Of a stretch of DNA of 64,000 nucleotides, positions 25,018-46,305 are shown one piece after another; the first letter of the stretch is position 1, and every line of letters begins with the position of its first letter. The DNA comes from Whalleya microplaca (taxonomy: Eukaryota > Ascomycota > Sordariomycetes > Xylariales > Xylariaceae): assembly GCA_022497155.1 (NCBI GenBank), contig MU385740.1, positions 124,001-188,000 of the forward strand, given 5' to 3'. The position numbers were made by a program, and so were the translations under genes. The notes beneath the pieces are model-generated. The model was not told the origin of the DNA and did no database searches. It worked only from the letters and a program-made list of their open reading frames with translations.

Positions 25018-28000
25018 TTACGCAGCAGTCTTGAGGCTGTCCGAAATCAACTCCGAAAGCGACGTGAGAGTTGTCGAGCTCGCTAGCAACGTCAGGAACG
25101 CAACATCGATCTTGAAGACCTGGAAAATCCAGCCTCGGAATTCGGCAGCCAACATGCTGTCCACTCCGATCTCGTTGATGGACTTGAGCACGTCCAGCTT
25201 GTCTGCCTGCACCAGCACCAAGTTGGAGAACTTCTTGGTGACCACCCCCAACACGGCCTCCTGTACGGCGGCACCCTCCTTCACGGCCTGCGCGACCTCA
25301 GCCGGGAGTCCGTTGTCGGAGGCAGCGCTGCCTCCCTGGTCAGCATCGTCGATAGCGGCCGCGAGGAGCGATGCACGAGGATCGCCCATGACCGGACTGG
25401 TCCCTTCGAAGCCCTTGGCTCGCAGCTCCTTCAATCCAAGGGGCTCCAGTCCCGTGAGAATATGGCCCCTCGCGAGCTGGTCGTAGCCACAGGCCGAAGT
25501 AGTGTGTGTGGAGAGAGCGATGTCGATGATCTGCAACATCTCGTCTTCACTGATGGCCTGGATTCCCTTTCGGAGTAGGAGTGCTTCGATCTCGGGGTTC
25601 TCGTGGAGGTAGCCCACCTCGGAAATCATACCCAAGCCGACTGACGTGGCGGGGAGACCCTGGCTGTGCCTGTAGCGAGCGAAAACGTCGAGGAAGTAGT
25701 TAGCACTGCAGTAGTTACTTTCGGTGGCAGTTCCGACACTTCCTGATACCGAGGATGTCATCAGGAAGAAGTCGAGGTCGGCGTCGCGGCCACGGATGGC
25801 GTTGTGGAGGTTCCAAGAACCCCTGATCTTGGGAGCAAGACCTGTGTCCCAGTACTCCTGGGTCATGGTCGTGAAAAGAGCTTCCTAAACGAGGGGTTAG
25901 AGGGAAAAGGTAATCAATAGTGGGGTAAAGACTTACGTTCAAGCCCATAGCAGCCTGGATGACACCACCGATGGTCCCATCAATGGCGTTCACAGCTTTC
26001 TCAACATCGCTGTAGTTGATAACGTCGCCACGCACAACAGTGACCTGTGCACCAGAAAACTCGAGATCCTCGACAAGACGGCGGGCAGGAGCTCGGTCAG
26101 TTCCCGTACGGCCGAGGAACACGAACTTCCGGGCACCCCTGCTCATCATCCACTTGGACATACTTCGACCAAGTCCACCGAGACATCCGATCATGAGATA
26201 AGTCTTCTCAGAGCTGAATTTGCTGCTGTGCTTCAAGGGAAGCAGCTTGATCTTGCGGCTTTCATCTTGGAAGGATACAACCACGGAATCGTTCTTGGTT
26301 TTGGAAGAGATGGCCCTGAAAGCCTCCTTGACTTGAGACGCGTCGAAGGTCTGCAGGCTCTTTTCGACACCTGGAATACCAGCCCGGAAAATTGAAATGG
26401 CTCCTTCTAAGAGCCTGCGGCGGATCTTCTGAGCAGCGGGGGTGTCCAGGCCGGCAAGCAGACCCATGTCCACAGTCGAAACAGCAACGCATTTCTGTGG
26501 CGAAAGATGGTGGGACGTTGAATCGCCTGCCTTGCCTACTTGTACAACTCGGCCAAACTCGGCGCATAGATCCTCGATGTTCTGAACAGGAAGACCACTT
26601 CCAAAGTCCAGGATGACATCGGCGCCATACTCCTGCGATGCAACCGGCTTTGTAGGAGAAATAACACGGACGTGAGCTCCAGCATGTTGAGCTAATAGTA
26701 TAGCCACCTGGCTAGCCAAATCATTGCCAGAGTTGACAAGTACCGACTCGCCCTCTTGAATGCGAGCCTGCTCAACAGCATACAGCGCGGTACCAACTGA
26801 GAAGGGAATGCTTGCGACAAGCTGAAGAAGTATTAGTTACACAAGCAGAACAATAGAGAGAGCCAAATCTCCGGGGATTAAATGAGCCACTTACCTCCAG
26901 ATTTTCGTCTCCCTTCAATTTCAAACACGTCCATGCTGGAACGCGCTCCAAGGTGCTGAAGTGTCCAGGGGCCAGTACAACGACTGAATCCCCAGCCGCA
27001 ATCGACTTGACTGCAGAGCCGACTTTAGCTACGACACCAGTGTACTGAGTAGAGCAAGTCGAGTCTTTGCAGAACACATCGCCGTTAATAGCATTCAAGT
27101 CCTTCATGATGTCAGCATATCATTACAATATTGCAAGGGTTAAACATACTCTCGAAGTCAGTCCAATCGCCTTCACAGACACCTCAACGAAGTCATCAGG
27201 CAGAGGCGTCTCAGCCACCTCCACACTCTTCAGCAGCAGTGAGTCAGGCTGCCCAACGGTCTCGATAGCCAGACGGCAAGGCTTAGCCTCTGAGAGGGGA
27301 ACCATAACGGTGTCGGAGCCCTGCTTTTCACGGAAGATCTGGTTCATGGTCTCATCGGGAACGAAGCGACTGACGTGAAGTGCTCCCGAGTCCGAAACGA
27401 ACTCGAAGTCCGGTACCTTGTCCTCAAGGGCTTGTCGCACGACCTTGACGATATTGAAGGCTGCAGATTCGGACTGCGACTTGACCTTGTCGGCTTCAAC
27501 ATCGACCACGAAAAAGCGTAGCGATGGTTGTTCGAGCATAAGCGCTCTCGAGAGACCGAAGCCCACACCGAACTCGGGCTTAGATCCGGAGAATAAGTTG
27601 CCGCCAGTGACCCAGATGAGGTTAGACACGTTATCTGTGATGGTCTTGACGAGACTCATCTCTTCCGCAGTCATTCTGCTAAGCACGGGGTCTTCCAGCT
27701 CCACCGTAGACACGACTGTGGACTGGGTGCCGAGGATGTCTGGGGTTAGCATGGCGAGTGGGACCCGTCGTACTGGATGCCCGGAGTAGTGGGACAGCAC
27801 GGAAGCCAGGAGGTCGTTGAAAGCTTCGTTGGATTTTCCTTCAACCTGTTTTTCATAGTGTTAGTTCAATTCCAAAATCGTTGCTATAATTAAAGAGTAA
27901 TTTCACTTACCAGGGTGATGTCTTTCACGGGGCTACTGTTCGATTGTTCCTGGTCATTGTTCTGAAGGCGTGCGAGGACTGTACTCTGGCCATTTCCGAT

Positions 28001-31000
28001 TTGCGAGTGTAGCGTAGTGAAGTCAGGATCCTGGAGACTTCCATTTTGCTGTGTGCCCTCGTTGTAAAGCAGGATGCCGCCATCATCTAGGAGACCCTTG
28101 ACGGCTGGGACGATGGAAGTCTGGCGGTTATGATTAGCATCAATAAATCCAATCAGAAATATGATGTCGAGTGTCAACTTACCGTAGATGGAGGCAGAAT
28201 AACGACATCGAACTTCTGATCATCACCTAGGCGTGCGGGTTCTCGCGACTCATCAAAGTCGACCAACTCAATCCCGACAGGCTTTCCACTGCCTAAGTAA
28301 GCGCCGCTGACACAAGACGTGCATCTCTTAAAGGGAGTTGCGATCCGCAGTAACATGACGAGATACTCGTTGATGCTACCCCAGAGGTTCAGGATGCGAA
28401 GTGTTGGCTTCTTGTGGCTTAGGAGGTCGAGAGCAGCTCCAACACCCCCGGCAAGGGGCTCGGCTCCAGGTATCTGGAACGAGGCGGTAAACTTTTCGAT
28501 GTACTCAGAGAGTCTGTCTTCGTCACCTGGCTCGAGAGTGGTGATATCGGGCTTCCAGGAGACACGGAGCATGGGCTGTCGCTCCTCACCGCCGTCTTGT
28601 GCCAGTGAACCGCTTTGGTAGGCGACTGCACGGCAGCGATTCACTTGCAAGAACACTTCTCCTTCGTCATTGTAGAGTTCACCAGAGATCTTAATGGTGC
28701 CAAAGCCTGCTGGGACAGAAATGGCATTGACATTCATTACGGATGACTTAGCCGGGGGAGGTCGAACTGTGATGCTATCAATCAGGACAGGCACCTTGGC
28801 ATTTAGCTCGTTGACGACACCGGAGGTGCTCGCGATGATGCCAGCTTGGAAAAGCGCATCGATTGTGACCGGGTGGACAATGTAGTCTGATTCTGGGTTG
28901 TTAGGAGGATTCTCGTAGTCCAGATTGGTCTTGGCATAGGTGTGCATGAGCTGTCGCTTTCTGTGGCATTGGATCTCAGTAAGAGATTGGAAACGGCCCT
29001 GGAAGTTCAGTCCAGACTTGGCAAATCGGTTGTACCAAGTGCGAAGAGCGAACGGTTCCATCACTTTGACATCGATTGGCAGGTCGGTCTTTGGCGGCGC
29101 ACTAGCCGTCCGCGTGAGCTTGACTAGACCACCGGCATGAGAGGTAGACTGTCCATCGAGGTAGGTGCAGATGTGGTATTTGTACCATGCCGGTCCACTT
29201 GTCACTTTGGACGCCTCGTCAAGTTCCATAGTCGTGAAAAGTTCAACACCTGGGTCGTTCTCCCCTTGTGGTAGCGGGAGAGCCTTCATAATCTTGATAT
29301 CTCGCAGGTCTACTGTGGGATTATCTTCTGCCTTAGTATCAGTTACTTGACAGATAGCTTCGATAGCCATTGCGATGAATCCAGCAGCAGGGAAGACAAT
29401 AGTCTGGTCAAGCTTGTGGCCTTCAACCCAAGCGACGTCCTTGGGTTTAAGGATATTGCGCCATGTAGTTATCAAGCCGTTACCGCCTTGCATCTGAGAG
29501 CCGAGAAGATCGTGTCGCTTGTATTTCCGATTTCTCCACTCTGTGCTGACACGGGGTTCGTTGAAGACTGTATCGTCATGATTCCACCGGTAGTTAGGGA
29601 GATCTACCAGGAGATTTCCTTTATGACTCTTTGTGGCGTTCTTCGAAAGGGGGACGTCGATGGCGTTTACGTCCTCGAACGACACGTCGTGACCGTGGAG
29701 AAAGATTTGGCCCACTAGATGCAAGATTGTTTCGACGGAGTTCTTGCCTCTGGAAATAGCAGTGTTATATCGCACTTTAGTATCGCTGATATTGAGGTGC
29801 GTTCGCGTCTGCTTGATTGGGAGCTCTAGAGCAGAGTGAGGGCCAATCTCGACAAAATGGTAGGTTCCTGACGTGATCATGGCCTCAACCACATTGCTGA
29901 ATAGCACTGGTGATTCCAGATTCGCACGCCAGTAAGCTGGACCGGCACCACCAACCATCTTCTCGCCAGTCACAGAAGATATCCATTCCACACTCGAATT
30001 GGTTAAACGATCGTCGCCAATGCCAGCTAGGCGGAGGTAGTCTTCGTATTCTCTCCCAATAACTGCCATGTGGTGAGAGTGGTAAGCCCTGCCGTCCGTC
30101 TTCAGTTTCCTCGCGAAAACACTCTGTCGGCCGAGTTCTTCCATAAACTGGTCAATTCCTTCGGCATCACCACTAATTGTGACACTTTCCGGTGAGTTCA
30201 CACAAGCCACTCGGATTTGCTTGCTGAGACCAAGTTCAGCAATCTTGGCTTTGGCCGCTTCAGCGCCTAACCCCGCCGCCATCATAGCACCGACCATTGA
30301 CGATCGCGTGACTGTATAGCCACGGTAGTAGGCGATTATTATGGCTTGCTCGGCGGTGATATAACCAGCGGCATATGCGGCAGCGATCTCTCCAGATGAA
30401 TGCCCCAGGACTGCCGTTGGGAGTATTTTCCAGTTAGCGAGCAGCTGAATGACGGCTACTTGTACTGCTGTGCAGACGGGCTGACTGTGGGATGCTTTGT
30501 TTATTTGACTAGTTTTGGCAGCTTCAAGAATAGCACCTAATCTTCTCGTTAGAGTGATAATCTAAGAACAGTCTGATAGTAACTCTTACCTCGCAGTGTC
30601 CAAGTAGGGGGGTGCGGCAGCAATTGTAAAACCTTGTCCATCCTCTCGATAGAGTGCCTGAAAGAGGGGAATTCTTCAATCAGTTCCTTGCCCATTTGAG
30701 GCCATTGAGCTCCTTGACCGGTGAACACGAAGGCCAAGGGGAGCTTAGGATACGGCACCCCTGGCTTCGTAGTGTGAAGTTTGTCCACATCGAGATCTGA
30801 ATGCAGAGTCCGGTGGCCTGCCAAGACATATCCCCGAGTTGACAGATGCGATCGCTTCGCCCCAAGCGTATAGGCAAGGTCTACAATACTGGTAGTGCCC
30901 AGGTCCAGCTGAGCTAAATCGGAAACTCTGCTCGTCAATGACTTAGGATTGCTGGCAGAAAAGGGTAGAAGCACGGTTGGTCGACTAGAGAATATGGGGA

Positions 31001-32910
31001 CCTCGGATGACTGCCGATAGCCAGCAGGGACGTGCATGTCAGCGGCTTCGAGGATCGCATGGGCGTTGGCTCCACCATATCCGAATGAATTGATTCCGGC
31101 TCTTCGGAAAGGACGGCCGGACGGGTGTTGCAGGCCATTTTCTGGCCATGCAGTGCCTTCAGTGACAATCTGCACATTCCATTCATCGGTTTTTATTTTA
31201 GGGTTGATGTTCTTGACCCCGATTGTAGGAGGAATGACACCCTTCTCAAGGGCCAGCGTGACCTTGATGATACTAGATATACCGCTTGCTGCTTCGCTGT
31301 GGCCAAGGTTCGTTTTCACCTAAGGGTATGTCAGCATAGAATCATTTATAGACCTAGATGATTATGGAATACATGGGTCGTATGCGCCAATCAAAATCGA
31401 ATATTGGGTCGATGCGAGAGCCAAGGATGGAAAAGACTTACCGAGCCAATCATCAGCGGCGAACCCTTGGGCTTCTTAAAGACCCTTGAAACCGCCTCAA
31501 CTTCAATTGGATCTCCAACTGCAGTACCTGTTCCGTGACACTCGACATAGTCTGTCTTTTCGAAATCCAGCTTAGCTTGCGCATAAGCCTTGCGGATGAC
31601 GGCTTCTTGTCCGTCGGCGCTTGGGAGCGTGATACCATTCGTCTTTCCATTACTGCATGAATAGTTAGTTTTATTCCCAAATTTAAGGGGCTCATGAGGT
31701 ACCTGTTGATAGCAGTTCCGCGGATGACAGATCGAATAGCATCTCCATCTCGGATTGCATCACTGAGTCTCTTCAAAAGCAAAGCACCAACACCATCTGC
31801 CCTCCCGTAGCCATCAGCAGAAGAGTCGAAAGTGTGACAAGTCGAGGTCTTCGATAGGACACCGGCCTTCATAGTACCCAAGTGTTGGTCTGGGGACTGG
31901 ATTAAGTTCACACCGGCTACGACGGCAGAGTTACACTCGCCAGCTAGCAGGGCTGAGCACGCAACGTGAAGACAATATAAGGATGAGGAGCAGGCAGTAT
32001 CGAGGACAAAACTGTGACCGTCTCAGTTAGCTTGCATTAGACAGTTTTTGTTCATGAATCCGTGATTCATTCAATATTCCATACCTTGGCCCTTTGAAGT
32101 TGAAAACGTGACTGATTCTGTTGGCTAAGATCGTAGTACCTAAACCAGTAGCCGTGTACCGATGAACGTATTCGGGGTCTTTAAGTTGCATGGTAATGAA
32201 GTCTGTTACGAAATTGCCGACGTAGCAGCCAATGTTCGACCCAGAAGCTTCATCTAAAGACACACCAGCATTCTCAAGACATTCGAAAACCACCTCAAGG
32301 AGCTTGCGTTGCTGTGGACTGATAAATAAAGTCAATACTTGTTCATTGTAAGAAATGAAGGGGTAATTGTAAGTTCAAAGGCATATCATGGGTCTCGATA
32401 ACTTCAAGCTATGCCTACAACAGAAATCGGTGCTCTTGAAATATATAAAATGGTTTCATAGTGGCTTACTCCATAAACATTGCCTCTAAGTTGTTAATTC
32501 CGAAGAACGAGTTCTCAAATCCACGAACGTCGCCGTCTATAAAATATCCCCCGGCTGTGTTAATACTGCCTGGACGGTCAACGTTAGGATGATAAAATCC
32601 ATCAATGTTGAATCTGTCGGTGGGCATATCCCGTTGTCCAGACAATCCAGCGATCAGTAGATCCCATAACTTGGCGGCCGAGTTGGCACCTCCAGGGAGT
32701 TGACAACCTTCAGTATAATGTTAGCTTCGGAACTCATAAATGGGGCAACCACATACCAATTCCAATGATTGCAATGGGTTCAGGGGATGCATCGTTTGTA
32801 TAATTATGCGAGTTGATGCCATTAACAAAGCCATTCTGGGTAGAGTTTGTGTGGTGATAACCGTTGGATAACCCATCTGGGGACTCGTCGAGTGTGCTGT
32901 GAGGAGCCAT
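25018..32910 (-). CDS. Highly reducing type I polyketide synthase, KS-AT-DH-(psi-MT)-(psi-ER)-KR-ACP
   Basis: Exons (minus): 32910-32757, 32707-32470, 32318-32085, 32011-31703, 31652-31442, 31319-30590, 30536-28183, 28120-27911, 27845-27150, 27101-26895, 26821-25937, 25884-25018; 2364 aa. KS (about 45-470): Cys216 in DTACSS, His351 in VECHGTGT, His389 in NLGHSE. AT (about 578-890): GQGAQW and GHSSGE with Ser672. DH (about 965-1240): His999, Asp1185, but the HxxxGxxxxP glycine is Gln1003. The methyltransferase region (about 1265-1440) is shortened and has ILNLWGS where the SAM-binding glycines belong. The ER (about 1600-1960) has NSGNDLASQ at 1811-1819 in place of the NADPH-binding glycine loop. 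[11 protein letters not shown] near 1990, Ser2121, Tyr2134. ACP: GVDSM with Ser2319. No thioesterase or reductase domain, so release needs a partner. It adjoins the cupin, SDR, P450 and MFS genes. Confidence 0.96.
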
Positions 32911-33682
32911 CTTTCAAAGCTTGCCCCTATTTGCGCCGTAAACTGGGTATAATGATTGACAGAAGGCAAGAAGGTCTAGTGATGTGCAAAACCGTCCGGA
33001 GTGATCTCGAGTAAAGTGGTTTCCAACGCAGGTATATATAGATATCTATTCGCACACATGTAGCCAGGCCCTCAACCGGCTCGAACTTCAAGATAAGAGC
33101 CACCGTTGATCCTACAGAAGGAGCATCCCCTTGTTACGCCTATATGCGTTAGATACGGCATTAGAACTCCATCTAATGCGGGTGACATGTTTTGTCACCA
33201 GTTCCTTGCCAACCATGAGAAATCTTCTTGGATGTCGATTGGAAGGATACGATGACTACAGGGAAGTGTGCATGGAGGAAGATAAGGGGAATATAATAGC
33301 CCTAGCTAGAAGCTTACAAGAAGCAGTCTAGCGGCGGGATTACGGACTAAATCATACGAGCGAATAGCCTCACGGGTGTATCTAGAGATATCTATTTATG
33401 GAGGGTTACGCAGGCAAAAGCCCAGTACAGAATATCCTAGTCCAAAATAAGATGAAAGAAGACGGGGTTATGAACATGTGCCCTTGTCACGTGTGGCACA
33501 GCTTATTGAATGTATCAGGATATTTCTTAGCCTTGTACGATATCATTCATTGGATATACTAGTGCCAAGAGGCTTAAACACATAAAGTAAGAGTATAGAA
33601 CGGTCCCTGCATCAGGACCTGCAATCGTGCTTACTATCTTGGTACCAAGGGTATAGTACAAGGATTTCTTGCATCCTCCAAC
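32911..33682. promoter_or_regulatory. PKS promoter region
   Basis: 772 bases between the PKS start and the 3' end of the cupin gene, both on the minus strand. A TATATATA element lies at 33033-33040, about 125 bases upstream of the PKS ATG. A CACGTGT motif lies at 33488-33494. No protein-coding signal. Confidence 0.45.
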
Positions 33683-34492
33683 TTAGTTCTTGCCGTTAAC
33701 CGCAGATTTGTCGTACTCTGCGTACTCCTTCATGAGGTATCCCATATCAAAATCTAAAGTCTTGCCGTTGACGACAAGGGGATCGCAGTCAAGTAGTACA
33801 TACAACATCCGGGCAGGCTTATCCTTGGACAAATTTTTCCAACAATGGAAAGCACCACGGTTGATAGAGACATCGCCTGGACGCAAGATGCGTCTCTCAC
33901 CACTATCCACGCTAAGTTCCATCTCTCCCTCGCATACTGTTCCAATACCCACACAAATGGCACGATGAAGGTTCGACTCCACGCCTGGTCCAAAGTCGAT
34001 CATACGCACCACACAACCATTGGGCATGTCTGCGAAATATGGGATTAGAGGATGGGGACATTACTAAGTGGTTTCTCCTGGGAGGGGAGGGGGACGCTAG
34101 AGAAGCAGGGTACTAGATGGATTCAAGAAGTGACTTACGTAGAGAAGGCTAGTTTGCACTAGAGTCAGTTTCACTTCGGATAAAGGGGTGCCCCAGACAT
34201 ACCTTGTGCTTCTTTGCAAATTCGAGATCAACATTCTCGTTCAGGTTGATAGGGTTGCTGTTGCTGCTGTAGAAGATGTTTTGGGCAGCGGCTCCCTCGA
34301 CCATCACAGCTTGATGATCACCATGGTCGGTCTAGAACTAATGATCAGCTATGTAGTGCTGTATGAGAGCGGCTCGGGTTAACAGACCTGCAGAAAGATC
34401 GCTTTCCCTTCGCTGTCATGGCCAGTAATGTAGCGGAACGGGTTTCGAAGCCCTGGGGCAGGGAATTCGGTAATGTTACCAGATGTACTCAT
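33683..34492 (-). CDS. Cupin-fold protein of the polyketide cluster
   Basis: Exons (minus) 34492-34388, 34331-34203, 34148-34139 (10 nt) and 34029-33683 give 196 aa. It starts MSTSGNITEFPAPGLRNPFRYITGH, as many fungal cluster cupins do. The barrel part has HMPNGCVVRMIDFGPG, ESNLHRAICVGIGTVCEGEMEL, then ILRPGDVSINRGAFHCWKN. Cupin motif 1 normally reads HxH then E; here only one His (LHRA) and the Glu remain. Motif 2 keeps its His and Asn. The barrel may therefore bind metal weakly or not at all. The exact microexon CCTTCTCTAC is required to join ...AKKHK to PSLHMPNG in frame. Relatives of this type accompany salicylaldehyde-forming HR-PKSs, where they assist ring formation or release; applying that here is inference. 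Confidence 0.88.
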
Positions 34493-36464
34493 GTTGATGT
34501 GATTGTATAAAATATCCTGATGAAGAACACAGGTTTCTATATTCTCAAGCCGTTTCAACAGGCCCGTTATATAATTGTGCTGATGGTCTAGACCGGAGCA
34601 ATGGTCATTCCGTCTCCGACTTACCCTATATACTAGACAATAAGACTATAATTGCTGTAAAACACATAGACTTTAGAACTTCAAACCCATGACTGTTTAT
34701 GTAAATCTTTTTAAATCTGATGCTATGTAACACTAAATTTTATCGACAATATTACTTTCATCGTTACCTTTGAGGTCTAAGTGTCGTACACTTCTCATCT
34801 TTACTTTGACTCGCTGCATATTATTCCATGAGAATTCATAGGTATGTGAACTTAGCGAGCCCTCTCTATACTTGCCAGTACTTCTGCAGAATCCTTTAAA
34901 AATCCGATCTATGCCAAGTCCTAGCCTCACAGATGAACCAGTAATCCTTCGTGCATGCAATAAGATCAATCCTATCTTTCCAACCGCTGATGAACGTGCG
35001 TTCGCTACCAATGATCATATTCTCGTTTCGTATGCAGCTAGGATATAACCATATCAAGGTTGATCAACATTCTCGGCCCGTTCCTGAAGGAACATGTTAC
35101 CTGATGAGTCAGCTGTAACCGAAAGATGCGTCTTGAAGCTGTTGTGTAATGCTGACTAGGAATGGCGGTATCTTCTTGATTAGATGCAGATGAGTAGGTT
35201 AGAACCTTGAGAAGAACCTCGGACGAATAGGACCCTCGACTAAAATTTACTATGATTCTTGTCCCTGCATCTTACCCTGCATTGGAAGATTTACTACTCA
35301 CACCCAAGGGCGTGTCAAGGAAATACTAGGTCATGACCCAGTTATACTATAAAAATATGGGTAGGAATACGCGTGTGTTTTCGTCCCCACTATCTTCGAT
35401 ACACACGTGTCAGCTGGAGCCTTGTCCAACATTGACAGCTTCAGCTATGAAAATCACTTGCCACGTGATTAGAGTGGTGGCTTTCATATATTATGCCCTA
35501 AGCTTCTAGACGTATGTCCTGGTTGGTCTGGATTCTAAGACGCGTATAATATCCGAATGTGAATCAAGTAAATACATAGGTATTACCTAACGTAGATATA
35601 ATATACTTACTGCCTATCCATTCGTATCTAGCTTTCGCCAACTTCAACAACATATTCTCTTAAGAGCGAGTGGGCTTTATAGAATTGGGAACATAATGTT
35701 CTCTGTTCCAGATAAAAACACTCTGATAATATATTCCAAGGCAGTTCCTCATGCTTGGTATCACCTGGGCATGCCTGTATCACACTTTAGACTTTAGGAT
35801 TTAAGACTAGTCTGGCGGCAGAATCATCAAATCAAACTGCCCATCAACATGCGTTTTGTTAACTAGGATTGCGGGAACATTTATCTTTGTTATCTGCAGC
35901 AAGGACGCCGGAGAGGCCGAGGGACAGTTCAACAGGGAAAAAGCTCCCATCGACAGTAGCTAGGTCTAGCTCGATGCCAAGTTTTATCTGAAGCTCAAGC
36001 TCTTACATACACGTGTAACAAGGGTCATCCTGATCAACCTTTGTGACCTTCCTTTTTCAGACTGTAACACAAACGATCCCCGCCGTTGAGTCGCGGGGAA
36101 GATGACCCCCATTCGGAGACAAGTATGTCCATGAGGCTTGAACTGGTGGCGAAGGTCTAGACTTAAGGTTAAATCCGCTATCGGAACATACCTAGACTAG
36201 GTGATCTCACATGGTACTGTGATAAAATCAGATGGTAGGGTAGTATTGAAGCATGTCTCACTTGTAAGCCGGGACGCCATGTGCGGGTTAGACCCGTGGG
36301 GCGGAACGACTCAGCCTTGTTTTTAGTATCATGCATGCCATGTCAGCTATTTATTCAAGAGACGAAAAGTGGTTGTCAGTACGAGGAATTCGTCTTCCCT
36401 TCATATCTTGCATTTACCGGTCTTCTTGCTTATCTACGCGTTGCTGTATTCCCCTGTCTCAAAG
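34493..36464. promoter_or_regulatory. 2-kb divergent promoter region, cupin and SDR1
   Basis: No gene found in either strand. Regulatory-looking sites: ACACGTGT palindromes at 35403-35410 and 36009-36016, CACGTG at 35462-35467, and a TGAGTCA (Gcn4/CPC1-type) site at 35105-35111. The long gap with repeated E-boxes would suit joint control of flanking cluster genes. I found no transcription-factor gene here. Confidence 0.45.
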
Positions 36465-37409
36465 ATGCTCAGCGGTATTGCACTCGTCACTGGGGGCGGA
36501 AGCGGGATTGGCCGCGACTGTGTCCTCGCATACGCGCACGAAGGTGTTCGAGCTATCGTAATCGCCGATATCAACGAAGAAGCGGCACTCTCCGCCGCCA
36601 ATGCTAGCCGAGAGCTAGCTACCAACACCGACTACGAAGCACTTGCTGTTCGAGTTGATGTTTCTAACGAGGAAAGTGTAAAAAGTTTGGTGGACACGAC
36701 AGTTAAGACATTCGGAAGAATTGATTACCTTGTCAACAGTGCGGGGGTAAGTAGAGCTGGTTACCTTTGTTCTCCGCTGCTGTTTCGTATTAATCCGGAT
36801 CCTGCAGCTAGGAGTGACTCTTCCGGCCGAAATTGGCGATGCCTCAGTTGAGGAATTAGATCGGTTCTTTCATGTCAACGTTCGGGGTACTTTTCTCTGC
36901 ATCCGTGCGGCTACGCAAGCGATGAAACAGCAAGACCCGAGGGTTGTGCAGGGCCGTCTCGGTCCTCGTCCTATCGGTCGCGGAGTTATCATTAACTTGG
37001 CGAGCTGCAATGCTTTCATGGCGACGCCGAACATCACACAATACACCGTGGCTAAGCATGCTGTGCTCGGAATGACTCGGAATGCTGGTATGCCACGCCG
37101 TACACTCACGTTGTTGCAAGGGAATAAACTGACAGACCCATCACCTCTGTAGCGCTTGATAACGCCAAGTACGGCATTCGCGTGGTTGCTGTATGCCCAT
37201 CTTGGGTGGATACGCCCATGGTCGATCGTGCGATGGCAGGGAATCCTGCCCTCAAGCCACTCATTGAAAGTGCTGTTCCCCTGGGTCGCATAGCGAGCGC
37301 AGAGGAGGTATCTGATGTGGTTACGTTCCTCAGCAGCCACAAAGCTAGCTATGTCACAGGGGTAGGATGGATAATTGATGGCGGCGCGACTCTCACCGTG
37401 CATGTGTAG
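36465..37409 (+). CDS. Short-chain dehydrogenase/reductase 1 (classical SDR)
   Basis: NAD(P)-dependent oxidoreductase, probably acting on the polyketide. Exons 36465-36746, 36808-37087 and 37153-37409 give 272 aa. Cofactor motif TGGGSGIG near residues 9-16; VRVDVSNEESV for the adenine-ring Asp; NSAG; the catalytic Ser in IINLASC; the YxxxK pair in QYTVAKH; then VVAVCPSWVDTPM and a standard GWIIDGGAT C-terminus. The ADIN segment (an acidic residue after the second beta strand) suggests NAD(H) preference. The first intron acceptor is fixed by frame (SAG|LGVTLPAE). The start is the ATG right before GIALVTGG. Divergent from the cupin across a shared promoter region. All catalytic residues are present, in contrast to SDR3. 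Confidence 0.93.
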
Positions 37410-38407
37410 TTTGGGAAGGATTTAGATAAAGTTCTAGGCTATAGTTGACAATTAAGATGATATTAAAATATATTGTGCTGCTTATTAACCATTCAAACTT
37501 CCCCGTGCTGACGTATACATGCATGACATAAGATAGCTAACCAATTTTCTTGAACTAATGCTGCACCCTACATGTAGTTGCATCTTGCACGTGTCACAAA
37601 TGTCGCACTGCTGTCGCGTAGAACTAGACCTTTAACAATTCCACCAAGATAGATACGCCGTATGTGTGTCGTCCATATTGAATGATCCGATTTTATTAGT
37701 TTCGGATATAAGACGTGGGACGATCCTTCGAAGGGAGTTATACCTTGCTAGGACCTCAACTTGTAGAGAACTTCCGAACTCCGCTGACTACGCATCTCAC
37801 CTACATATGCATGGATATCGTAAGGTATAGATTCCTACCACTACTTGGATTTTTGATCGTAGCAGGGTCCTTAGCCTCAATTTGATAGAGCACCCCTGCC
37901 TCTAGCACTACTTCGGCAATCTTCTCTCAAGGGTACCTTGTCTCTGCCATTGGCTATACCCTAAAATTGCGGCTCAATCGTAAACAAAGGTTCATGTAGC
38001 ACTATTATGAACATACAGGCGCGGCTGCAAGTGAATTTACCAAGATGAAGGATGGATGACACAGCAAGCGCATCCTCCAATATCCCAGAAGAATTCAGAT
38101 GCGGGAGATAAGTTACAAATATGTCTAGCCTCGCGGATGAATGCGATAGCCTTGAACGGAGTCATTATTATGCCGCTTGCAAGGCCAACATGGGATCCGT
38201 ATCATAGTATCATCTGTAGCCTAGAGCCGCGTATTCGTGGGTGTAAGGGTCTAAATGCGATATTATCATCTCAGTCAACGTTTCTACCAGCCCTCCGCGT
38301 ATGACCTCGCCGTCGATATTGTCATAGTCTGAGGATTCAACAGTAGTCTAAAAGTATACCACAACTCACTAAGTTTCATTCTCTAGTAGAAGGAGCTACC
38401 TGAAGTG
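37410..38407. other. Intergenic region between SDR1 and SDR2
   Basis: About 1 kb, AT-rich, without a supportable gene. A CACGTGT motif occurs at 37588-37594. It must contain the SDR2 promoter. Confidence 0.5.
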
Positions 38408-39707
38408 ATGCTTAAAAAGTTCGCTTTGATCACCGGGTAAGCCCCCTTGACAGTTATGATGCTTCTACTATTCACTAATGAATTGTCTCGACAGCTGTGG
38501 CCAGGGTGGCATAGGTCATGCACTCACAGAGGAATTTGTGCGTCAGGGCTTCACTGTCATTGCTACACTCTTAGAACATGAGAGTGATGAGCACTTGCAA
38601 AGTCCACAAATTCATATGCTGAGGTTGGACGTCACGAAGGAAGCGGATGTAGCATCATTCTACGAAAAGGTTTTCAAAATATGTGAAGGCCGACTAGATG
38701 TTCTAGTTAACAATGCGTATGTAAAAACATATATCTAGACGACCACGATATATTTTAGCATGCTAACTGTGCATAATGTCATTAGTGGCATATGTATGTT
38801 CTACCTTCTCAAAGTCTACAATTATCACTGTTGACACTTTTAAGGCTACACAATGACTGCAGCAGATACGGATGTGCGTTCCGTCGAGAAGATGTTTGCC
38901 GTGAACCTTTTTGGGCCAATGCGCATGGTGCACCATTTTCATAGGATGATTATTGCCGCAAAGGGCATCATCATTAACATCGGCTCAATTGGAGGGATCT
39001 CCCCTTATGTAGTAAGTATTTTGTTCGTACAGATGACAACTAAATTTATTGACTTTGTCTTACATAGTTTGGTGCTTCGTATAATGCATCTAAGGCTGCT
39101 TTGCACCACTGGGGAAATACTGTCCGTGTTGAAATGCAACCTTTTGGGTTAGTAATTCGGGAGTTATCCTAAGCAGCATTTACTCACTAATGATAAATCA
39201 GCGTGAGAGTCATGAACGTTATTTCTGGCGAGGTTTCCACGAACATCTTGAAAAGTGATGTTCATGACGGTCGTCAACTCCCCCCTGGTAAGTATACTAA
39301 AGGATAAGTTGAAGTAATTGAACTAACATCCTATAGACTCAGTCTACCAACCCATCGCAGAAGTCTTCAAGGCTCATATTCACAGAACTCCAAGTATGAA
39401 AAATGATCTTAGCTTATGTGATGAAAATTGCTTATCAGAGCATTAGGTACAATGACGCCTGCTGAGTATGCGAAGGGGGTTGTGGCAAAGTCTACTGCCA
39501 AGTCTCCACCCGCATGGTTTTGGCACGGAAATTCGACTACGATAGTGCGGCTATTAGATGCACTATTCCCACGTACTGTCTTTGTAAGATTTGTTCTCCC
39601 GTGGAATACTAACACACTAGCTAATGCCATTGCTCTAGGATGGCATGTTTTTCAAGTGGTTCAGTCTCGAGAAACTTCAAAACACATTTGTGGCAGATCG
39701 CGGTTAA
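38408..39707 (+). CDS. Short-chain dehydrogenase 2, Ayr1-like (1-acyl-DHAP reductase-like)
   Basis: Nine exons: 38408-38436, 38495-38716, 38786-38793 (8 nt), 38845-39011, 39068-39147, 39202-39287, 39337-39393, 39441-39583 and 39639-39707, giving 286 aa. The raw frames look broken, but splicing restores one continuous SDR. It carries MLKKFALITGCGQGGIG at the cofactor site, RLDVT, VLVNNAGICY, IINIGSIGG with the catalytic Ser, and SYNASKAAL (YxxxK). The C-terminal half, with FPRTVF then DGMFFKWFSLEKL, is the membrane-associating tail usual in Ayr1-like reductases. The 8-nt exon TGGCATAT encodes the GI of NNAGICY and is bounded by ATTAG and GTATGTTC. The protein probably reduces a ketone or aldehyde of the polyketide. 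It sits between SDR1 and the P450 inside the cluster. Confidence 0.88.
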
Positions 39708-40658
39708 ATTCCAGATGTTGTAAATCCTTGTATAGGCAATTTTTACTGTTTACGAGATGTGCGAGACTAGTTGTATCAACCCTGGAAGAGTTCGTTTCAC
39801 TGTATCTGACCTCATTGCAATAGTTACGCAGTGTTCGGAAATGCCCTCGCAATCATCTTGCATTTGATAGATATATTTATCGAATGTAGTGCTACTATGT
39901 TTTCTCACGAGAAGTGCCCATAAACAAATGTGACCAAGCATATAAAGGGATATGACTGACATTATAATAGTCGCATTGCTTTTGCGACAAGTATACTATT
40001 GCAACGACATTATAATGTTATTATAGCGATAGTCATTGGAGAATTTATAAGAAGAGTGCAATATTCAACTAAATATATGAGAAAGATTTATAATGTAGGG
40101 TATCATAGTGTTGAAATACAGGGTTAATGAGGTTTAGATTGACTTGAGGTTCAGCTATTCTAGAGTGGCAGATGGCCTGTTATATACACAATGCTACTAT
40201 TTGTGCCTTGTACTGTACCAGTCCTTGACCCTTAATTCAACACATGGTACGGTTTAGATTTAGGCGATTTATAGTCCGAGCCCCCACCCCGACCCCACCT
40301 CTTCAACTTGTGGAAAACTAGTCCCTGGAGAGCATCAACGGTTGATAATATGCTGGCATTTTTTGTAAGGCAAGGTTTACCAAAAAGAGAGAAAAGAAAA
40401 AGTCACATTTCGTAGTTACTTAAAATTTTACATATAAACAGACCCAAAATGAACTAAAGGTCGATTACATATAAAGATGGATACCAAATCAAGTCAAGGG
40501 TCTCGGAAACAACACGGACGAGAGTGATATATATGAGCCACCGAATGTATACTAATGTGAAAACTCCAGAATATTAACATCTTTTGTCCAAGTGAGGGTC
40601 TTGTTGATTTCCCACAAAGACGTTGCAGAATATGGATCCTTGCTACTTGCATGCACTC
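39708..40658. other. AT-rich intergenic region with a solo LTR
   Basis: 950 bases between SDR2 and the P450 (convergent). It contains the LTR-like repeat at 40109-40242. Just before it (39950-40050) are short palindromic runs built from ACATTATAATGT-like and CGCA..TGCG pieces, possibly part of the same dead element. Confidence 0.55.
40109..40242 (+). mobile_element. Solo LTR-like element with 5-bp target duplication
   Basis: 134 bases starting TGTTGAA and ending TTCAACA, a perfect 7-bp terminal inversion with the TG...CA ends of retrotransposon LTRs. It is flanked by CATAG on the left and CATGG on the right, a 5-bp duplication with one transition. A diverged relative lies at 7833-7956. No internal retrotransposon genes are nearby, so it is a solo LTR or a remnant. 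Confidence 0.7.
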
Positions 40659-42497
40659 CTATGCCTTCTCTCTCCTAGTGACCCGCACCCACATTTTGTT
40701 CTGTAGAAACAAGGTATAGTTCCGACTATCCCACGGCTTATTAGGATGCAATAGGAAGAAATTGAATCTTCGCAGCAGCTATCAGATGGTCAGCAACCCC
40801 AGCGTTCCCGAATGGTGTGGGAAGGGAGTTGGGGTGTACCTCAACAAAGATCTTGTTTAGTTCGGCGCGAACGATGGCTTTTCCAAGACAGGCCCATCGA
40901 CCAGAACCGAAGATAATATCCACAGTCCTCTCCATGTGGCGCTTCCGGTCAGGGTCAGCCTCGAGCCAGCGTTCGGGACGGAAAACTTCGACATCTTCCC
41001 CGAACTCAGGCCCACGCTGCATTCCCCAACCGCAATGGCCCTAGTTCCCAGCGTGAGTTCGTACACAGAGGAGTATTTCAGCATGGATAGAGCAACTTAC
41101 GACACTTGTGCCGCCCGGGACGAAGGTACCCTTGATCACTTCGCCTCCAGGATTGGTCTTTTTCATCAACATCCCGGTAAAGGGAGGCCAAATACGTAGC
41201 CCTTCTTGGATGCAGGCTTGGAGGTATGGAATGTCCTTCGCCTCCTCGTCAGTGATAGGGGATGAAACTCTGCCTTTCTCAATGCCATCATCGATTTCGG
41301 CTAGAAGCCGAGAATGCACTTGCGGGTTGCTGATGATGAACAAGAAAATAGATCGCACTGCTGTAGAAGTAGTGTCGGACCCAGCGAGACTATAATCGGA
41401 TTAGCTTGGAGTCTTGGTAGACTTAACCGAGTGTGATAACTCACATCTGTGTTAAGATTTCCGACTCAGCTTGTCGACGTGACATGCCGTGGCTCAAAAA
41501 AGATCCTAGCATATCCCGAGCTTCTACCTTGTTCGGGCCAAAACGTTGACCCACATATTCTTGAGCTATCCTATTCGTGGCCGTCAGTTACAAGCTTGCG
41601 TATATCCGTGGGCATAGGACATAGGACATAATTACTTACGCCATCAATTTTCCCTGGCCTTTTTCATCTTTTGGGCTAGGACCCACGAGGTTCATCAACC
41701 ATCTTTGGTTCATGATACGACCCAGCGTTGGGGTTGAGGAACACATTGTGACAAAAGGGAGCACCGCATTTATGGTAGAGACATAACCGTGAATATCTTG
41801 GTCCGTAGCTAGGTCCCCAAAGGGTTGTCCGAAGACGAACGACGAGACCACGTCGAGACTGAAGTACTGAGCCACTAGGGCAAAGTCCATAGGGCGAACA
41901 CAGTCGCTAGAGGATATGTATTTGCGCTCTATAAGGTCTATAAAAGAGCTTATAGCAAGGTCAATCTGAGCTCCCAATTGAGGATTCTCTTTCATTTGGA
42001 ACTGTGCCATGTTAGTATCTCTTGACATACCCCCAGTGAGGCTAGAAACTTACGGCAGAGCTTATTTGCCCCCTCAACTTGTCATGCTTGATCGGATCAA
42101 GTTCTGAAAAGATGTTGTCCACATATGGGTCGACCTTCAAACTGGCATACCACCCAGTTTTGGAGTGCTTTAGTCTTGCCGCAGACATATGTCGACCTAC
42201 GTCTGGATCGTCGGAAATGAGTTCATTGGGGCCTATTCGCACAAGGTGCGCAGAGTTGGACGGTCCGTATTTTTTTACAGTGTCCGCTAGACGAAGATGC
42301 ATCTCCCCGGTATATGCTGTTTTGAAGATCCATGACTCTGAAAAAGAGGCAAGTAATGGTCCTTTGAATTTACGTAGTTTGAACCAAGCTTTGACGTAAG
42401 AAGCTACAACAGCAGCTACAACAATGAAGGGGAGATATGGCAGACCACCAGATATGTACTCTCCTGCTCTCGTTGAGGATATTAATGATGTACTCAT
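40659..42497 (-). CDS. Cytochrome P450 monooxygenase of the polyketide cluster
   Basis: Haem-thiolate oxygenase anchored in the ER. Exons (minus) 42497-42054, 42001-41640, 41570-41445, 41389-41101, 41040-40840 and 40778-40659 give 513 aa. An N-terminal hydrophobic anchor (LPYLPFIVVAAVVASYV) lies near residues 18-34. The I-helix is AGSDTTSTAVR, the ExxR motif is EGLR, and the haem loop is FGSGRWACLG. The last exon is easy to miss: reading on from exon 5 gives a false C-terminus, while splicing GAG|gtacac to the next AG restores the usual LLRRFNF...MWVRVTRREKA ending. The overall pattern resembles the pisatin-demethylase/benzoate-hydroxylase-like fungal P450s. The start could also be 42563, 22 codons upstream; I prefer 42497 because it directly precedes the anchor. 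Probable role: hydroxylation of the cluster product. Confidence 0.93.
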
Positions 42498-43485
42498 GAT
42501 GAATAACTTTTCGGGCTTGGCTGTAAGGCTCTTAGCGACAATGAAACTCACTCTATTTGTCATGGCATACTGTAGACTTCAACTATGTCCAAGATTATAT
42601 AGTACGGCGATACTCATCACATCAGTCCATAATGGCTACATCTCTGATCGAAGCATAGAGAGACTAGCTCCTCGAGAGCTTTGAACTGATAACGAGTGCC
42701 TAGCGGATGGGGGTGTCTATAGAGTCTACCCCCAGTTCCATCGTACGAGTGGGATAGAGTTTACCAGGGTATAACGTTTTCCCGAAATGCTTGCAACTTG
42801 TGTGCCGTAGGATTCTAATGTTAGGGATGAGCCTGGCCCAAATGGGGTTCAGCGTGGTGATACGACTCCGAAAGTATCTAATACCCTGGGATAGTACACA
42901 AAAGAAAGTAAGGCTAGCGTGTTCGAGACTTGGACCCTGAACGTCGGCTTTAAGTTGTGGCGCGTGAGAATCCCTGCGCATCCATATGCAAGGCAGCAAA
43001 CGGCCCGCTTAGGATTGGATGATGACTGCAGGGTACGTGGTTGGGGCTAAGATGCATAATGTTGCAGGGGACCAACCATAGCCAGCTGGGCGGGACGCCA
43101 CGAAGTCCGAAGGATTGTAAGATTGCACCGGCCAAATAATCTTGCCGTCTACGGCTCGTGGTGTATGGCCGAATTGAAATATGAGACATATCGCCTGTAA
43201 GAGTTTCTACCAACACAAGCCAAAGGGTCTCCGCGAGAGCCCCCGACCACGGCGAAATGCCTCTCCCTCAGACGGAAAAGTTGCCCACCCGAGTACCACA
43301 GGAAACGCTTCAGATTGAGCCTACTTAATCGTTGCTGTCCTGATGTGAAGTGAAAATATTCTTTGCCAACCTCAAATCAATCAACAGCTTCTGCACTTGG
43401 GTTTTCAAGACCTGCACTATCTGCTTCTTTCTTGATTTCCATTGAACCCGGCCACGAGCAGAGAAGTACGTGTTTTCATTTCGCC
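42498..43485. promoter_or_regulatory. Divergent promoter region, P450 and MFS transporter
   Basis: About 990 bases between two divergent starts, with no gene of its own. A TATATAG sequence at about 42596-42602 would suit P450 transcription, and TACGTG occurs at about 43031 and 43467. The shared promoter suggests that oxidation and export genes are co-expressed. Confidence 0.45.
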
Positions 43486-45197
43486 ATGGAGAACCAAGAC
43501 CCGACCGTTACTCCCGAGGAGAAGGAGATGGATGCGCGCGCGGAGGCACTGCCGGAACCCAAGGAGCCCCAGGAGCCGGCACGCAAGCTGCACGGCATTC
43601 TCTGGGTCATCTGCGTAGCGTCCATCATATCGGCTGTCTTCCTCTTCTCTCTCGACAACACCATTGTCGCCCTTGTCCAACCACAGATCATCGAGAGTTT
43701 CGGCAGCATCGAGAAGCTCCCATGGCTATCTGTCTCGTTCGCTCTGGGAAATGTGGCAGTCAACCTGCCATGGGGTAAGCTTTACGGGCAGTTCAATAAC
43801 AAGATAATGTTCATCATCGCCGTCCTTCTCTTTGAGATTGGCTCTGCCATATGTGGTGCTGCGCCGAACATGGATGCTTTCATCATTGGAAGAGCGATCT
43901 GCGGTGTCGGCGGAGGTGGCATTTACATGGGTTCAATGAATTTACTTTCTGTTACCACCACCAGTCAGGAGCGCCCGCTGTACCTGAGCTACATCGGCCT
44001 CACTTGGGGCACTGGCACCGTGCTTGGACCCATTATCGGCGGTGCATTTGCGATCAGTACAGCGACATGGCGGTGGGCTTTCTACATCAATCTCTGCATC
44101 GGTGCACTGGCTGCACCTGCTTTGATCTTCTTACTCCCTTCGCATAACCCTAGACCAGGTGTTAGTGTAGGGCAGCGAACCCGGGAGCTTGATCTCATTG
44201 GTACGGTACTCGTCATCGGAGGCTTGGTATCCGGCATCATTGCTATCGGCTTCGGTGGTGCTCTGTACCCATGGAACAGCGGCCAAATCATCGGTTCGTT
44301 TGTATGCTCAGGTGTGTTGTGGATACTCTTCATCGTACAGCAGTCCTTCTCCATCTTTACTACGCCTCAACGACGTCTGTTCCCGTGCGACCTGGTAAAG
44401 AACTGGGAGTTGGACATTCTCTTTGCACAAGTAGCCGCTGCGATCTCGTGTGCATTCATCCCCATCTACTTCATCCCGGTAAGTCTTCAGTCGGGAATTA
44501 TGATAGAGATGACTCGCGATTTGCTAACGTCGTTTTCTCGTAGCTGTACTTCCAATTCGTGAAGAACGATGCGGCACTGCAGGCTGGTGTTCGTCTCCTC
44601 CCGTATATCATTCTCATGGTGTTCTCCACCGTTTTAAGCGGTGCTATCGTTAGCAAGACGGGCGTCTACATGCCGTGGTTCTTGGGTGGTAGCATACTAG
44701 CCGTCATCGGTTCAGCCCTGATGTACACTACCACCATTAATACGGATATCGCCAGAATCTATGGCTACACCGTCATTCTAGGTTTCGGTGTAGGGAGCTA
44801 CTCGCAGCTCTCATTCTCGGTTGGACAGGCCAAAGTCGGACTCGAGCGCGTTGCGGATGTCACTGCGTTCATTGGTTTTGGTCAAATGGGCGGGATTGCC
44901 TTGGCGTTGTCTATTGCTAACTCCGTTTTCCTCAACCGGGCGACTATTGGAATCGCCTCGGTTGTCCCGGATGCTCCAGTTTCAGAAATCCAGACAGCCA
45001 TCCAAGGCGCTGGCAACTCGTTCTTTGAGAGTTTGAGCAGCAGCCAGAGAACAGCAGTCTTGGACGCCATTGTGGATAGTATGAATGATGCGTACATCCT
45101 GGTGATGGCAGGCGCTGCCCTTTCGGTTGTCCTTGCTGTCTTCATGAAGAGAGAAAGACTCTTTTTCGCAGATGGAGCCGTTGCAGGGGGTGCTTGA
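43486..45197 (+). CDS. MFS transporter, DHA2 (14-TM drug:H+ antiporter) family
   Basis: Plasma-membrane exporter, likely for the cluster product or self-protection. Exons 43486-44478 and 44544-45197 give 548 aa. After a charged cytosolic N-terminus of about 40 residues come the hydrophobic helices. TM1 ends in LFSLDNTIVALVQPQI, the DHA2 motif D1 equivalent. GRAICGVGGGGIYMGSMNLL and LTWGTGTVLGPIIGGAFA (motif C, antiporter signature) follow, then TWRWAFYINLCIGAL. The single intron (CCG|gtaagt...tcgtag|CTG) joins IYFIP to LYFQFV. The start is the ATG in a CGCCATGG context; a longer in-frame extension to 43363 is less likely because it lies in CT-rich leader sequence. Typical of fungal secondary-metabolite clusters. 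Transcribed divergently from the P450. Confidence 0.94.
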
Positions 45198-45528
45198 ACA
45201 AGAGACTACATTGAAATGATCGACGGAATAGAATGGAATCCCAAGGCAGCTAGCTTTATATGCAGAACAAGATTGTAGTAATTAGTTGAACGTAGATAGC
45301 AGGAATCCCTGCTTATACAGAAAAAGGATGGGATGATTAATGGAGAAGGAGTTGATCAGGGGGCCTACGAAAAGTACTTAAAGGGTAGACACGCCCGCCC
45401 GTAATCCTCTGATATTCTCACACTCTTGTTCTGTCCCATACTCAATCAGTGCTGTCTATCCGTCGCAACGTAGCTGTGAACAAAGTGGTTACTATCATCA
45501 TAATTTGCGAAACACCAACCAGTCAACT
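45198..45528. other. Intergenic region between MFS gene and SDR3
   Basis: 331 bases holding the MFS terminator and the SDR3 promoter. CT-rich close to the SDR3 start. Nothing else seen. Confidence 0.5.
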
Positions 45529-46305
45529 ATGTCTAAACCACAAGCCCAAGGAAAGCTTACAGGGAGCAACGTGCTCATCATTGGCGGATCAAGCGGTATT
45601 GGTTTCGCCGTCGCTAAAGCCAGCTTAGGCGAAGGCGCCAATGTCACTCTAGCCTCCTCACAAGAGTCGCGTCTTACATTTGCAGTCAATCGGCTCAGAG
45701 CTCAGTACCCGACCACACAGGTTGAAGGCAAGATCTGCAACATCGGCAACTCAGACGATCTGGAGAGTAACCTTGCGGCTCTCTTCGCCGGATTTAAGGA
45801 TCCGATCGATCACATCGTCTTCACGGCCGGTGACGCCCTTGCCGTAGGCCCTGTGTCCGAGTTCAGCGCCGCAGCTATCACCCAGGCGGGCGTCGTTCGC
45901 TTCCTAGCGCCGCTGCTCCTGGCCAAATACGCAGCGCGACATCTCCGGCCCGGCCATGTCTCGTCTCTGACTCTGACGGGCGCCACCGTCGCACAAAAGC
46001 CCCAACCGGGCTGGGTCGTCCCGGCTGCCTACGGGGCCGCATTGGAGGGGATTGTGCGTGGCCTAGCCCTGGACCTCAAACCGGCCCGCGTCAATGCCGT
46101 GTGCCCTGGGGCCGTAATGACTGAGCTCTGGAACCCCATGCCGGCTGAGATGCGAAAGCAGACCTGGGAGGCGATTGCGCGGGGTCACACCACAGGTCGT
46201 ATGGGAGAGCCCGAGGATGTCGCCGAAGCGTATGTCTACTTGATGAAGGATCGGAACTGCAGCGGAACTCTAGTCCACACAGATGGGGGGGTATTGGTGA
46301 TGTAA
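45529..46305 (+). CDS. Atypical short-chain dehydrogenase 3 (YxxxK lysine absent)
   Basis: Intronless, 258 aa. Rossmann motif NVLIIGGSSGIG near residues 15-26, then ANVTLASSQESRL; the SSQ after strand two favours NADP(H). IDHIVFTAGD stands in the NAG position. In the catalytic region the sequence reads LTLTGATVAQ...WVVPAAYGAALEGIVRG. The tyrosine is present, but the lysine three residues later is a leucine-flanked position (Y-G-A-A-L), so the normal YxxxK proton relay is missing. The remainder is typical: DLKPARVNAVCPGAVMTELW and GTLVHTDGG. The protein may be a non-canonical reductase, use another residue, or act as a dehydratase- or cyclase-like helper. Similar Lys-less SDRs occur in fungal clusters. 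It is the last gene on this side of the cluster. Confidence 0.9.
   Translation: MSKPQAQGKLTGSNVLIIGGSSGIGFAVAKASLGEGANVTLASSQESRLTFAVNRLRAQYPTTQVEGKICNIGNSDDLESNLAALFAGFKDPIDHIVFTAGDALAVGPVSEFSAAAITQAGVVRFLAPLLLAKYAARHLRPGHVSSLTLTGATVAQKPQPGWVVPAAYGAALEGIVRGLALDLKPARVNAVCPGAVMTELWNPMPAEMRKQTWEAIARGHTTGRMGEPEDVAEAYVYLMKDRNCSGTLVHTDGGVLVM

What the first reader, a model, noticed from the sequence alone, without database searches (positions are those of the whole stretch)
25018..46305. HR-PKS + cupin + three SDRs + P450 + MFS: a candidate salicylaldehyde-type polyketide cluster
Seen: seven intact genes, namely a PKS without a release domain, a one-histidine cupin, a classical SDR, an Ayr1-like SDR, a Lys-less SDR, a P450 and a DHA2 exporter. 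Known, from memory: flavoglaucin (fog), virensol/trichoxide (vir) and sordarial (srd) clusters combine an HR-PKS with three SDRs, a cupin and a P450, and build alkyl or alkenyl salicylaldehydes without a non-reducing PKS. Inferred: this locus makes such an aromatic aldehyde or alcohol. It lacks the prenyltransferase and flavin oxidase I recall from fog, and no pathway transcription factor is present, so the product may be new.
Basis: partly seen in the sequence, partly recalled or inferred. Interest (0 to 1): 0.75.

Follow-up and report, generated by a model that had tools for sequence, protein, structure and literature searches.

The report
Sordarial-type aromatic polyketide gene cluster
A fungus (Whalleya) carries an intact seven-gene cluster of a well-known kind that should make a small aromatic alcohol or aldehyde related to sordarial; it is mostly ordinary, but one domain of its main enzyme looks like a dead relic that its closest relatives share.

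Summary
The seven genes are real and intact (window 25018-46305). The PKS and cupin models equal public Whalleya microplaca proteins letter for letter. PKS, cupin and two canonical SDRs match the published minimal set for alkyl salicylaldehydes or salicyl alcohols, a kind already counted in at least 493 clusters (PMC11915489). Within that kind this is a sordarial/pyriculol-branch member: the nearest Neurospora proteins are 76% (cupin) and 54% (PKS residues 1200-2364), and KS and cupin trees place it with them.

The PKS enoylreductase domain has lost its glycine-rich motif, as have 15 of the 120 listed PKS hits; the 14 of these that entered the KS tree form one group. The side chain should therefore stay unsaturated. 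The third, Lys-less SDR is of a family that lacks the Lys anyway (0 K of 120) and accompanies only the closest PKS relatives among listed hits.

No SrdI/FogF-type flavin oxidase domain was found in the window, so the end product may be the alcohol. Product and expression are unknown. Mostly ordinary.

The parts
25018..32910 (-). HR-PKS, 12 exons, 2364 aa: KS-AT-DH-(non-catalytic core)-relict ER-KR-ACP, no release domain found
   Evidence: identical to W. microplaca F5B20DRAFT_548487 (P0100)
26270..27308 (-). relict enoylreductase region of the PKS (residues about 1660-1965, limits chosen by me)
   Evidence: Pfam ADH_N match 23.1 bits, under its 23.5 cut-off; low identity for its branch
26711..26737 (-). 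place of the ER NADPH motif (residues 1810-1818): no glycine-rich loop is left
33683..34492 (-). cupin, 4 exons (one of 10 nt), 196 aa, SrdD-like by similarity
   Evidence: identical to F5B20DRAFT_548492 (P0001)
36465..37409 (+). SDR1, canonical SDR (YTVAK at residue 173), 3 exons, 272 aa; core SDR
   Evidence: counterparts in two further clusters of the genome
38408..39707 (+). SDR2, Ayr1-like SDR (YNASK at residue 147), 9 exons (one of 8 nt), 284 aa; core SDR
   Evidence: counterparts in two further clusters of the genome
40659..42497 (-). cytochrome P450, 6 exons, 513 aa
   Evidence: PF00067 145 bits; AGSDTT and EGLR motifs; heme loop reads FGSGRWACLG, which my strict pattern did not match
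43486..45197 (+). MFS transporter, 2 exons, 548 aa
45529..46305 (+). SDR3, Lys-less SDR of PF23441, 1 exon, 258 aa

Best explanation
An intact salicylaldehyde/salicyl-alcohol polyketide cluster on the sordarial/pyriculol branch, in Whalleya microplaca. Mechanism: (1) the HR-PKS joins malonate units, reduces with KR and dehydrates with DH, but its ER domain no longer works, so double bonds stay in the chain (domains and motifs shown; activity inferred). (2) There is no release domain; the two canonical SDRs and the cupin release and oxidise the chain so that it closes by aldol condensation and becomes an aromatic ring with an alkenyl side chain (inferred from the published roles of SrdC/D/E and of the four-gene sets). 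(3) The P450 oxidises the side chain or ring, SDR3 performs one further redox step, and the MFS exports the product (inferred from gene families only). (4) With no SrdI/FogF-type oxidase found nearby, the end product may stay at the benzylic alcohol level (inferred, weaker). Chain length and final structure are unknown.
For: Intact genes, two models identical to public proteins. Cupin 76% to N. crassa P0003 and 66% to P. oryzae P0024; PKS residues 1200-2364 54% to N. crassa P0103, KS 82%. KS tree group of 14; cupin tree. Published minimal set HR-PKS + two SDRs + cupin (PMC11915489); SrdA releases a chain cyclised by SrdC/D/E (PMC7698770 passage). Same four gene types in two further clusters of this genome. 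ER motif lost in 15 of 120 listed hits, kept in 103 of the other 105 under a relaxed pattern and 99 of 105 under a strict one. At matched KR identity of 75-80% the ER averages 33% identity in the ER-lost set (50 pairs) and 66% in the rest (165 pairs). KS, AT, DH, KR and ACP motifs intact. The proposed sordarial precursor carries a diene side chain that fits a PKS without ER activity (pathway passage; the link is my inference).
Against: No product, expression or enzyme data. The names SrdA and SrdD for P0103 and P0003 are inferred from truncated source names and published locus descriptions; the original sordarial, trichoxide and pyriculol papers were not held. DH and core are also about 10 points less alike in the ER-lost set, so part of the ER drop is general divergence. 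Among 15 ER-lost PKSs, only 8 have a listed cupin on a contig of the same length, 7 have none, including the closest (P0101); one of the 8 (P0051) falls in the other cupin group, and several contigs are megabases long. P450, MFS and SDR3 membership rests on position; no shared promoter motif was found. One review says the side-chain CYP it discusses is absent from the N. crassa cluster.
Confidence: 0.85

Rival explanations
1. A flavoglaucin/cytosporin-type (fog/px) cluster that makes a prenylated, saturated-chain product.
For: Shares PKS, cupin, SDRs, a P450 and an MFS with the published fog-like px cluster of Xylaria (PMC11161606 passages).
Against: No DMATS-type prenyltransferase and no FAD_binding_4 domain found in the window; the PKS groups with N. 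crassa and Pyricularia; the ER motif is lost. The genome holds a better fog/px candidate on C6.
Confidence: 0.04
2. Only the core (PKS, cupin, SDR1, SDR2) is one pathway; P450, MFS and SDR3 are unrelated neighbours or serve another pathway.
For: No shared promoter word or CGG-type site across the five intergenic stretches; no pathway regulator found; in the two sister clusters of the genome no SDR3 match and only a weak P450 match (27%, C6) was seen.
Against: SDR3's two best listed relatives lie on contigs of the same length as the PKS's relatives P0101 (168,143 bases) and P0102 (3,996,199 bases), and these three PKSs group together (94). Flanking genes are of other kinds (HET, RidA-like, fungal rhodopsin, amidoligase).
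Confidence: 0.2
3. A cluster that makes a non-aromatic reduced polyketide (for example a polyene alcohol or lactone).
For: HR-PKSs usually make non-aromatic chains; the trees are anchored by few characterised enzymes.
Against: The specific cupin plus the two SDRs are the published aromatising set, and the cupin is 76% identical to the N. crassa one.
Confidence: 0.05

Closest known systems
Sordarial cluster (srd), Neurospora crassa
   Same: Cupin 76%, PKS residues 1200-2364 54%, same KS group, ER motif also lost in the N. crassa PKS P0103, SDR/cupin/SDR cyclisation set.
   Different: Published srd has the flavin oxidase SrdI and a PYC7-type reductase homolog; neither an FAD_binding_4 domain nor an EHN epoxide-hydrolase domain was found in this window. 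No Neurospora-named protein is among the 120 listed SDR3 hits of 1600 (many rows are unnamed). A review says the side-chain CYP it discusses is absent from the N. crassa cluster.
Pyriculol cluster (MoPKS19/PYC1), Pyricularia oryzae
   Same: P. oryzae cupin 66%; Pyricularia PKSs (42% over residues 1200-2364) share the KS group and the lost ER motif. That P0136 is MoPKS19 is inferred.
   Different: The oxidase PYC10 interconverts alcohol and aldehyde forms with PYC7; no FAD_binding_4 domain was found in this window. PYC7 was not compared.
Flavoglaucin (fog) and xylasporin (px) clusters
   Same: HR-PKS, cupin, SDRs, P450.
   Different: Prenyltransferase and flavin oxidase in fog/px, none found here; the genome's own px-like PKS (P0210, on C6) keeps the ER motif and lies outside the group.
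Annullatin (anu) and roquesalin (rus) clusters, Penicillium roqueforti
   Same: The same four-gene core.
   Different: P. roqueforti cupins P0053, P0054 and P0057 (53%) fall in the other cupin group; P. roqueforti PKS P0140 keeps the ER motif. Which of anu or rus these are was not determined.
Solved SDRs 6nkk, 6nkm, 6nkh (PhqE and MalC, names recalled)
   Same: Closest solved relatives of SDR3 (about 202 and 185 bits); the Arg recalled as catalytic (R131) aligns with R124.
   Different: The Asp recalled as needed for Diels-Alder catalysis (D166) aligns with Q159 (alignment; roles recalled).

Membership tests
Alkyl salicylaldehyde/salicyl-alcohol HR-PKS clusters | HR-PKS without release domain, one cupin and two canonical SDRs side by side | tested here: met
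Alkyl salicylaldehyde/salicyl-alcohol HR-PKS clusters | Cupin of the family, with conserved His/His/Glu | tested here: met
Alkyl salicylaldehyde/salicyl-alcohol HR-PKS clusters | Makes an aromatic aldehyde or alcohol | not testable with these tools
   no metabolite data
Sordarial/pyriculol branch | KS groups with N. crassa and Pyricularia PKSs | tested here: met
   110 of 120 rows, SH-aLRT 97; anchor names inferred
Sordarial/pyriculol branch | Flavin oxidase of SrdI/PYC10 type in the cluster | tested here: not met
   no PF01565 match in the window (92 of 92 candidates scored)
Sordarial/pyriculol branch | PYC7-type reductase | not tested
   no PYC7 sequence obtained
fog/px prenylated salicylaldehyde clusters | DMATS-type prenyltransferase | tested here: not met
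   no PF11991 match on this contig (8 of 8 candidates scored)
PhqE/MalC reductase-Diels-Alderases (for SDR3) | Catalytic Arg and Asp (recalled) | tested here: not met
   Arg present, Asp replaced by Gln in the alignment; roles recalled

The most novel reading that the evidence does not exclude
A single ancient loss of enoylreduction defines the sordarial/pyriculol lineage of HR-PKSs and fixes its chemistry (alkenyl side chains that P450s and other oxidases then decorate). Inside it, a Xylariales sub-branch (Whalleya, Xylariaceae sp. FL0662B, Truncatella) gained a non-canonical Lys-less SDR and, in Whalleya at least, has no SrdI-type oxidase nearby, giving a variant that ends in benzylic alcohols or their cyclised forms.
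Probability: 0.3. Interest if true: 0.45.

Novelty: new member of a known kind. Interest (0 to 1): 0.3.

Why it matters
It links a named fungus to a defined branch of a large pathway family. It also makes a testable rule: a PKS's ER motif may predict saturated versus unsaturated side chains across these clusters. I did not find that rule in the papers I could read, but the primary sordarial, trichoxide and pyriculol papers were not held, so it may already be in print.

Tried and rejected
Considered and rejected: SDR2 as a pseudogene. One intron did not keep phase until an 8-nt exon was recognised. The cupin needed a 10-nt exon, which the public protein confirms. The P450 C-terminus was first read through an intron and then corrected.

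Led nowhere: shared promoter motifs (9 seven-base words in at least 4 of 5 stretches against 6.04 in shuffles, none of 8 or more bases); the paper behind solved cupin 8x0u (no paper); papers naming PhqE and MalC together (none); papers joining salicylaldehyde, enoyl reductase, polyketide synthase and short-chain dehydrogenase (none); Kuhnert 2021 on Hypoxylaceae holds none of my six terms. The 30-paper listing for 'Whalleya' was seen as a listing only; no title in it concerned this cluster.

Limits: the absence of FAD_binding_3 (PF01494) was poorly tested (19 of 140 candidates scored), as was Zn_clus (150 of 199). Fungal genomes other than this one could not be searched for gene order. The three protein searches went to cupin, PKS and SDR3, so P450, SDR1, SDR2 and MFS relatives outside this genome were not examined. 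PKS identities refer to residues 1200-2364 only. Of 120 PKS rows, 10 (one of them ER-lost, P0106) were dropped from the KS tree for short KS regions; of 99 cupin hits, 73 entered the tree. The ER-lost label was set by eye and recounted; P0167 (cut short) and P0193 (changed, outside the group) are the two of 105 others that miss the relaxed motif. A first recount used a faulty pattern and is not used.

Full report
What is there. One search listed open frames; a small Viterbi gene finder and hand inspection of splice sites gave seven intact genes: PKS (-, 25018-32910), cupin (-, 33683-34492), SDR1 (+, 36465-37409), SDR2 (+, 38408-39707), P450 (-, 40659-42497), MFS (+, 43486-45197) and SDR3 (+, 45529-46305). 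The PKS and cupin equal public Whalleya microplaca proteins letter for letter, which also names the organism. The genome held is 48.1 Mb in 114 contigs.

Anatomy. Pfam finds KS, AT, DH, KR and ACP in the PKS, a weak NAD-binding core, an ADH_N match just under its cut-off and no release domain. KS, AT, DH, KR and ACP motifs are intact. Where the ER's NADPH loop should be (residues 1810-1818) there is VNSGNDLAS. The two canonical SDRs keep YxxxK; SDR3 does not, but in its family no K is found at that column in 120 hits. The cupin keeps H103, E115 and H143, and its closest solved relative is 8x0u (E 1.5e-58).

Which kind. A 2025 paper (first third of the text seen) says that HR-PKS, two SDRs and one cupin are usually necessary for alkyl salicylaldehyde derivatives and counts at least 493 homologous clusters in 401 strains. 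Window cupin to N. crassa P0003 is 76%, to P. oryzae P0024 66%, to P. roqueforti P0053 53%. In the cupin tree (73 of 99 hits) the window cupin and its Truncatella relative stand at the base of a 47-row group with P0003 and P0024 (89/94, not strong), inside a 50-row side (98/86), apart from the P. roqueforti group (99/97). PKS residues 1200-2364 are 86% identical to Xylariaceae sp. FL0662B P0101 and 54% to N. crassa P0103. That P0003 and P0103 are SrdD and SrdA is inferred: the source names are cut off in the listing, and the published locus lies around NCU02918-NCU02930 (passages).

The relict ER. Of the 120 listed PKS hits (of 750), 15 lack the glycine-rich ER motif; of the other 105, 99 keep it under a strict pattern and 103 under a relaxed one. 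In a KS tree of 110 of the 120 rows the 14 ER-lost rows present are one side of one branch (SH-aLRT 97), which fits one ancestral loss. At KR identity 75-80% the ER averages 33% in ER-lost pairs (n=50) and 66% in the others (n=165); DH (45 against 55) and core (37 against 47) also drop, but by far less. The proposed sordarial route goes through an aldol-closed salicylaldehyde whose side-chain double bond is epoxidised and opened (PMC9860963 passage), which needs no enoylreduction; that link is my inference. So the Whalleya product should carry an unsaturated side chain or something made from one.

The extra SDR. SDR3 belongs to PF23441; its closest solved relatives are 6nkk, 6nkm and 6nkh, which I recall as PhqE and MalC. 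The Asp I recall as needed for their Diels-Alder reaction is a Gln here, so that reaction is not suggested. Its best public hits are in FL0662B (81%, contig of 168,143 bases, the same length as that of PKS P0101) and Truncatella angustata (58%, contig of 3,996,199 bases, the same as PKS P0102 and cupin P0002). No row named Neurospora is among the 120 listed of 1600, though many rows are unnamed. P0100, P0101 and P0102 group together in the KS tree (94). SDR3's only other match in this genome at E below 1e-15 is on C19 (45%). Hence SDR3 looks like a sub-branch addition. Contig-length matching is a weak test: 8 of 15 ER-lost PKSs have a listed cupin on a same-length contig, 7 do not, and P0101 is among the 7.

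What is missing. No FAD_binding_4 (92 of 92 candidates scored), EHN (8 of 8), DMATS (8 of 8) or Zn_clus (150 of 199) match lies in the window; FAD_binding_3 was poorly tested (19 of 140). In pyriculol biosynthesis the alcohol form is reported to come first and PYC10 to oxidise it to the aldehyde (PMC8788799 passages); SrdI, FogF and VirF are the AnuG-type flavin oxidases (PMC11375781 passage). Without one nearby, an alcohol end product is plausible, unless an oxidase elsewhere in the genome acts. Pestalotiopsis heterocornols and Sordaria sordariols are known alcohol-type products of this chemistry.

Borders. Left: a HET gene (21920-23539). Right: a fungal-rhodopsin gene near 50 kb. No shared promoter motif was found.

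Verdict. A sound and mostly ordinary find: an intact new member of a known pathway family, placed on the sordarial branch, with a clade-wide relict ER and a sub-branch SDR as the points worth a specialist's note.

Noticed in passing
G000:C66, about 231.7-244.1 kb (L013, L014): A second salicylaldehyde-type core in the same genome near a contig end: HR-PKS, SDR1-like, SDR2-like and cupin (55-57%); its ER loop reads AGAGAFG, close to the intact form.
   Followed up: partly
G000:C6, about 1109-1142 kb (L015-L017): A third, fog/px-like region: PKS (98-100% to P0210 over most of its length, ER motif intact), cupin, both SDR types, P450, FAD monooxygenase-like frame, Zn2Cys6 regulator, and further on a DMATS and an FAD_binding_4 match.
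   Followed up: partly
G000:C9:350576-350683 (L018): An isolated match to the first 36 residues of the cupin (61%), with no further cupin match listed on C9; possibly a remnant.
   Followed up: no
window:38786-38793 and window:34139-34148: Micro-exons of 8 and 10 nt in SDR2 and the cupin; the second is confirmed by the public protein.
   Followed up: yes
window:8613-10268 and window:21920-23539: Two HET-domain (heterokaryon incompatibility) genes left of the cluster.
   Followed up: no
window:58308-59828: Amidoligase_2-domain protein, 506 aa.
   Followed up: no
window:20536-20988: Small RidA-like (Endoribonuclease L-PSP) protein between the HET gene and a long gene-poor stretch.
   Followed up: no
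P0094, Fusarium acutatum: A public protein model that runs from this cupin's N-terminal half into a PKS ER segment with an intact glycine loop; perhaps an annotation fusion of neighbouring genes.
   Followed up: no
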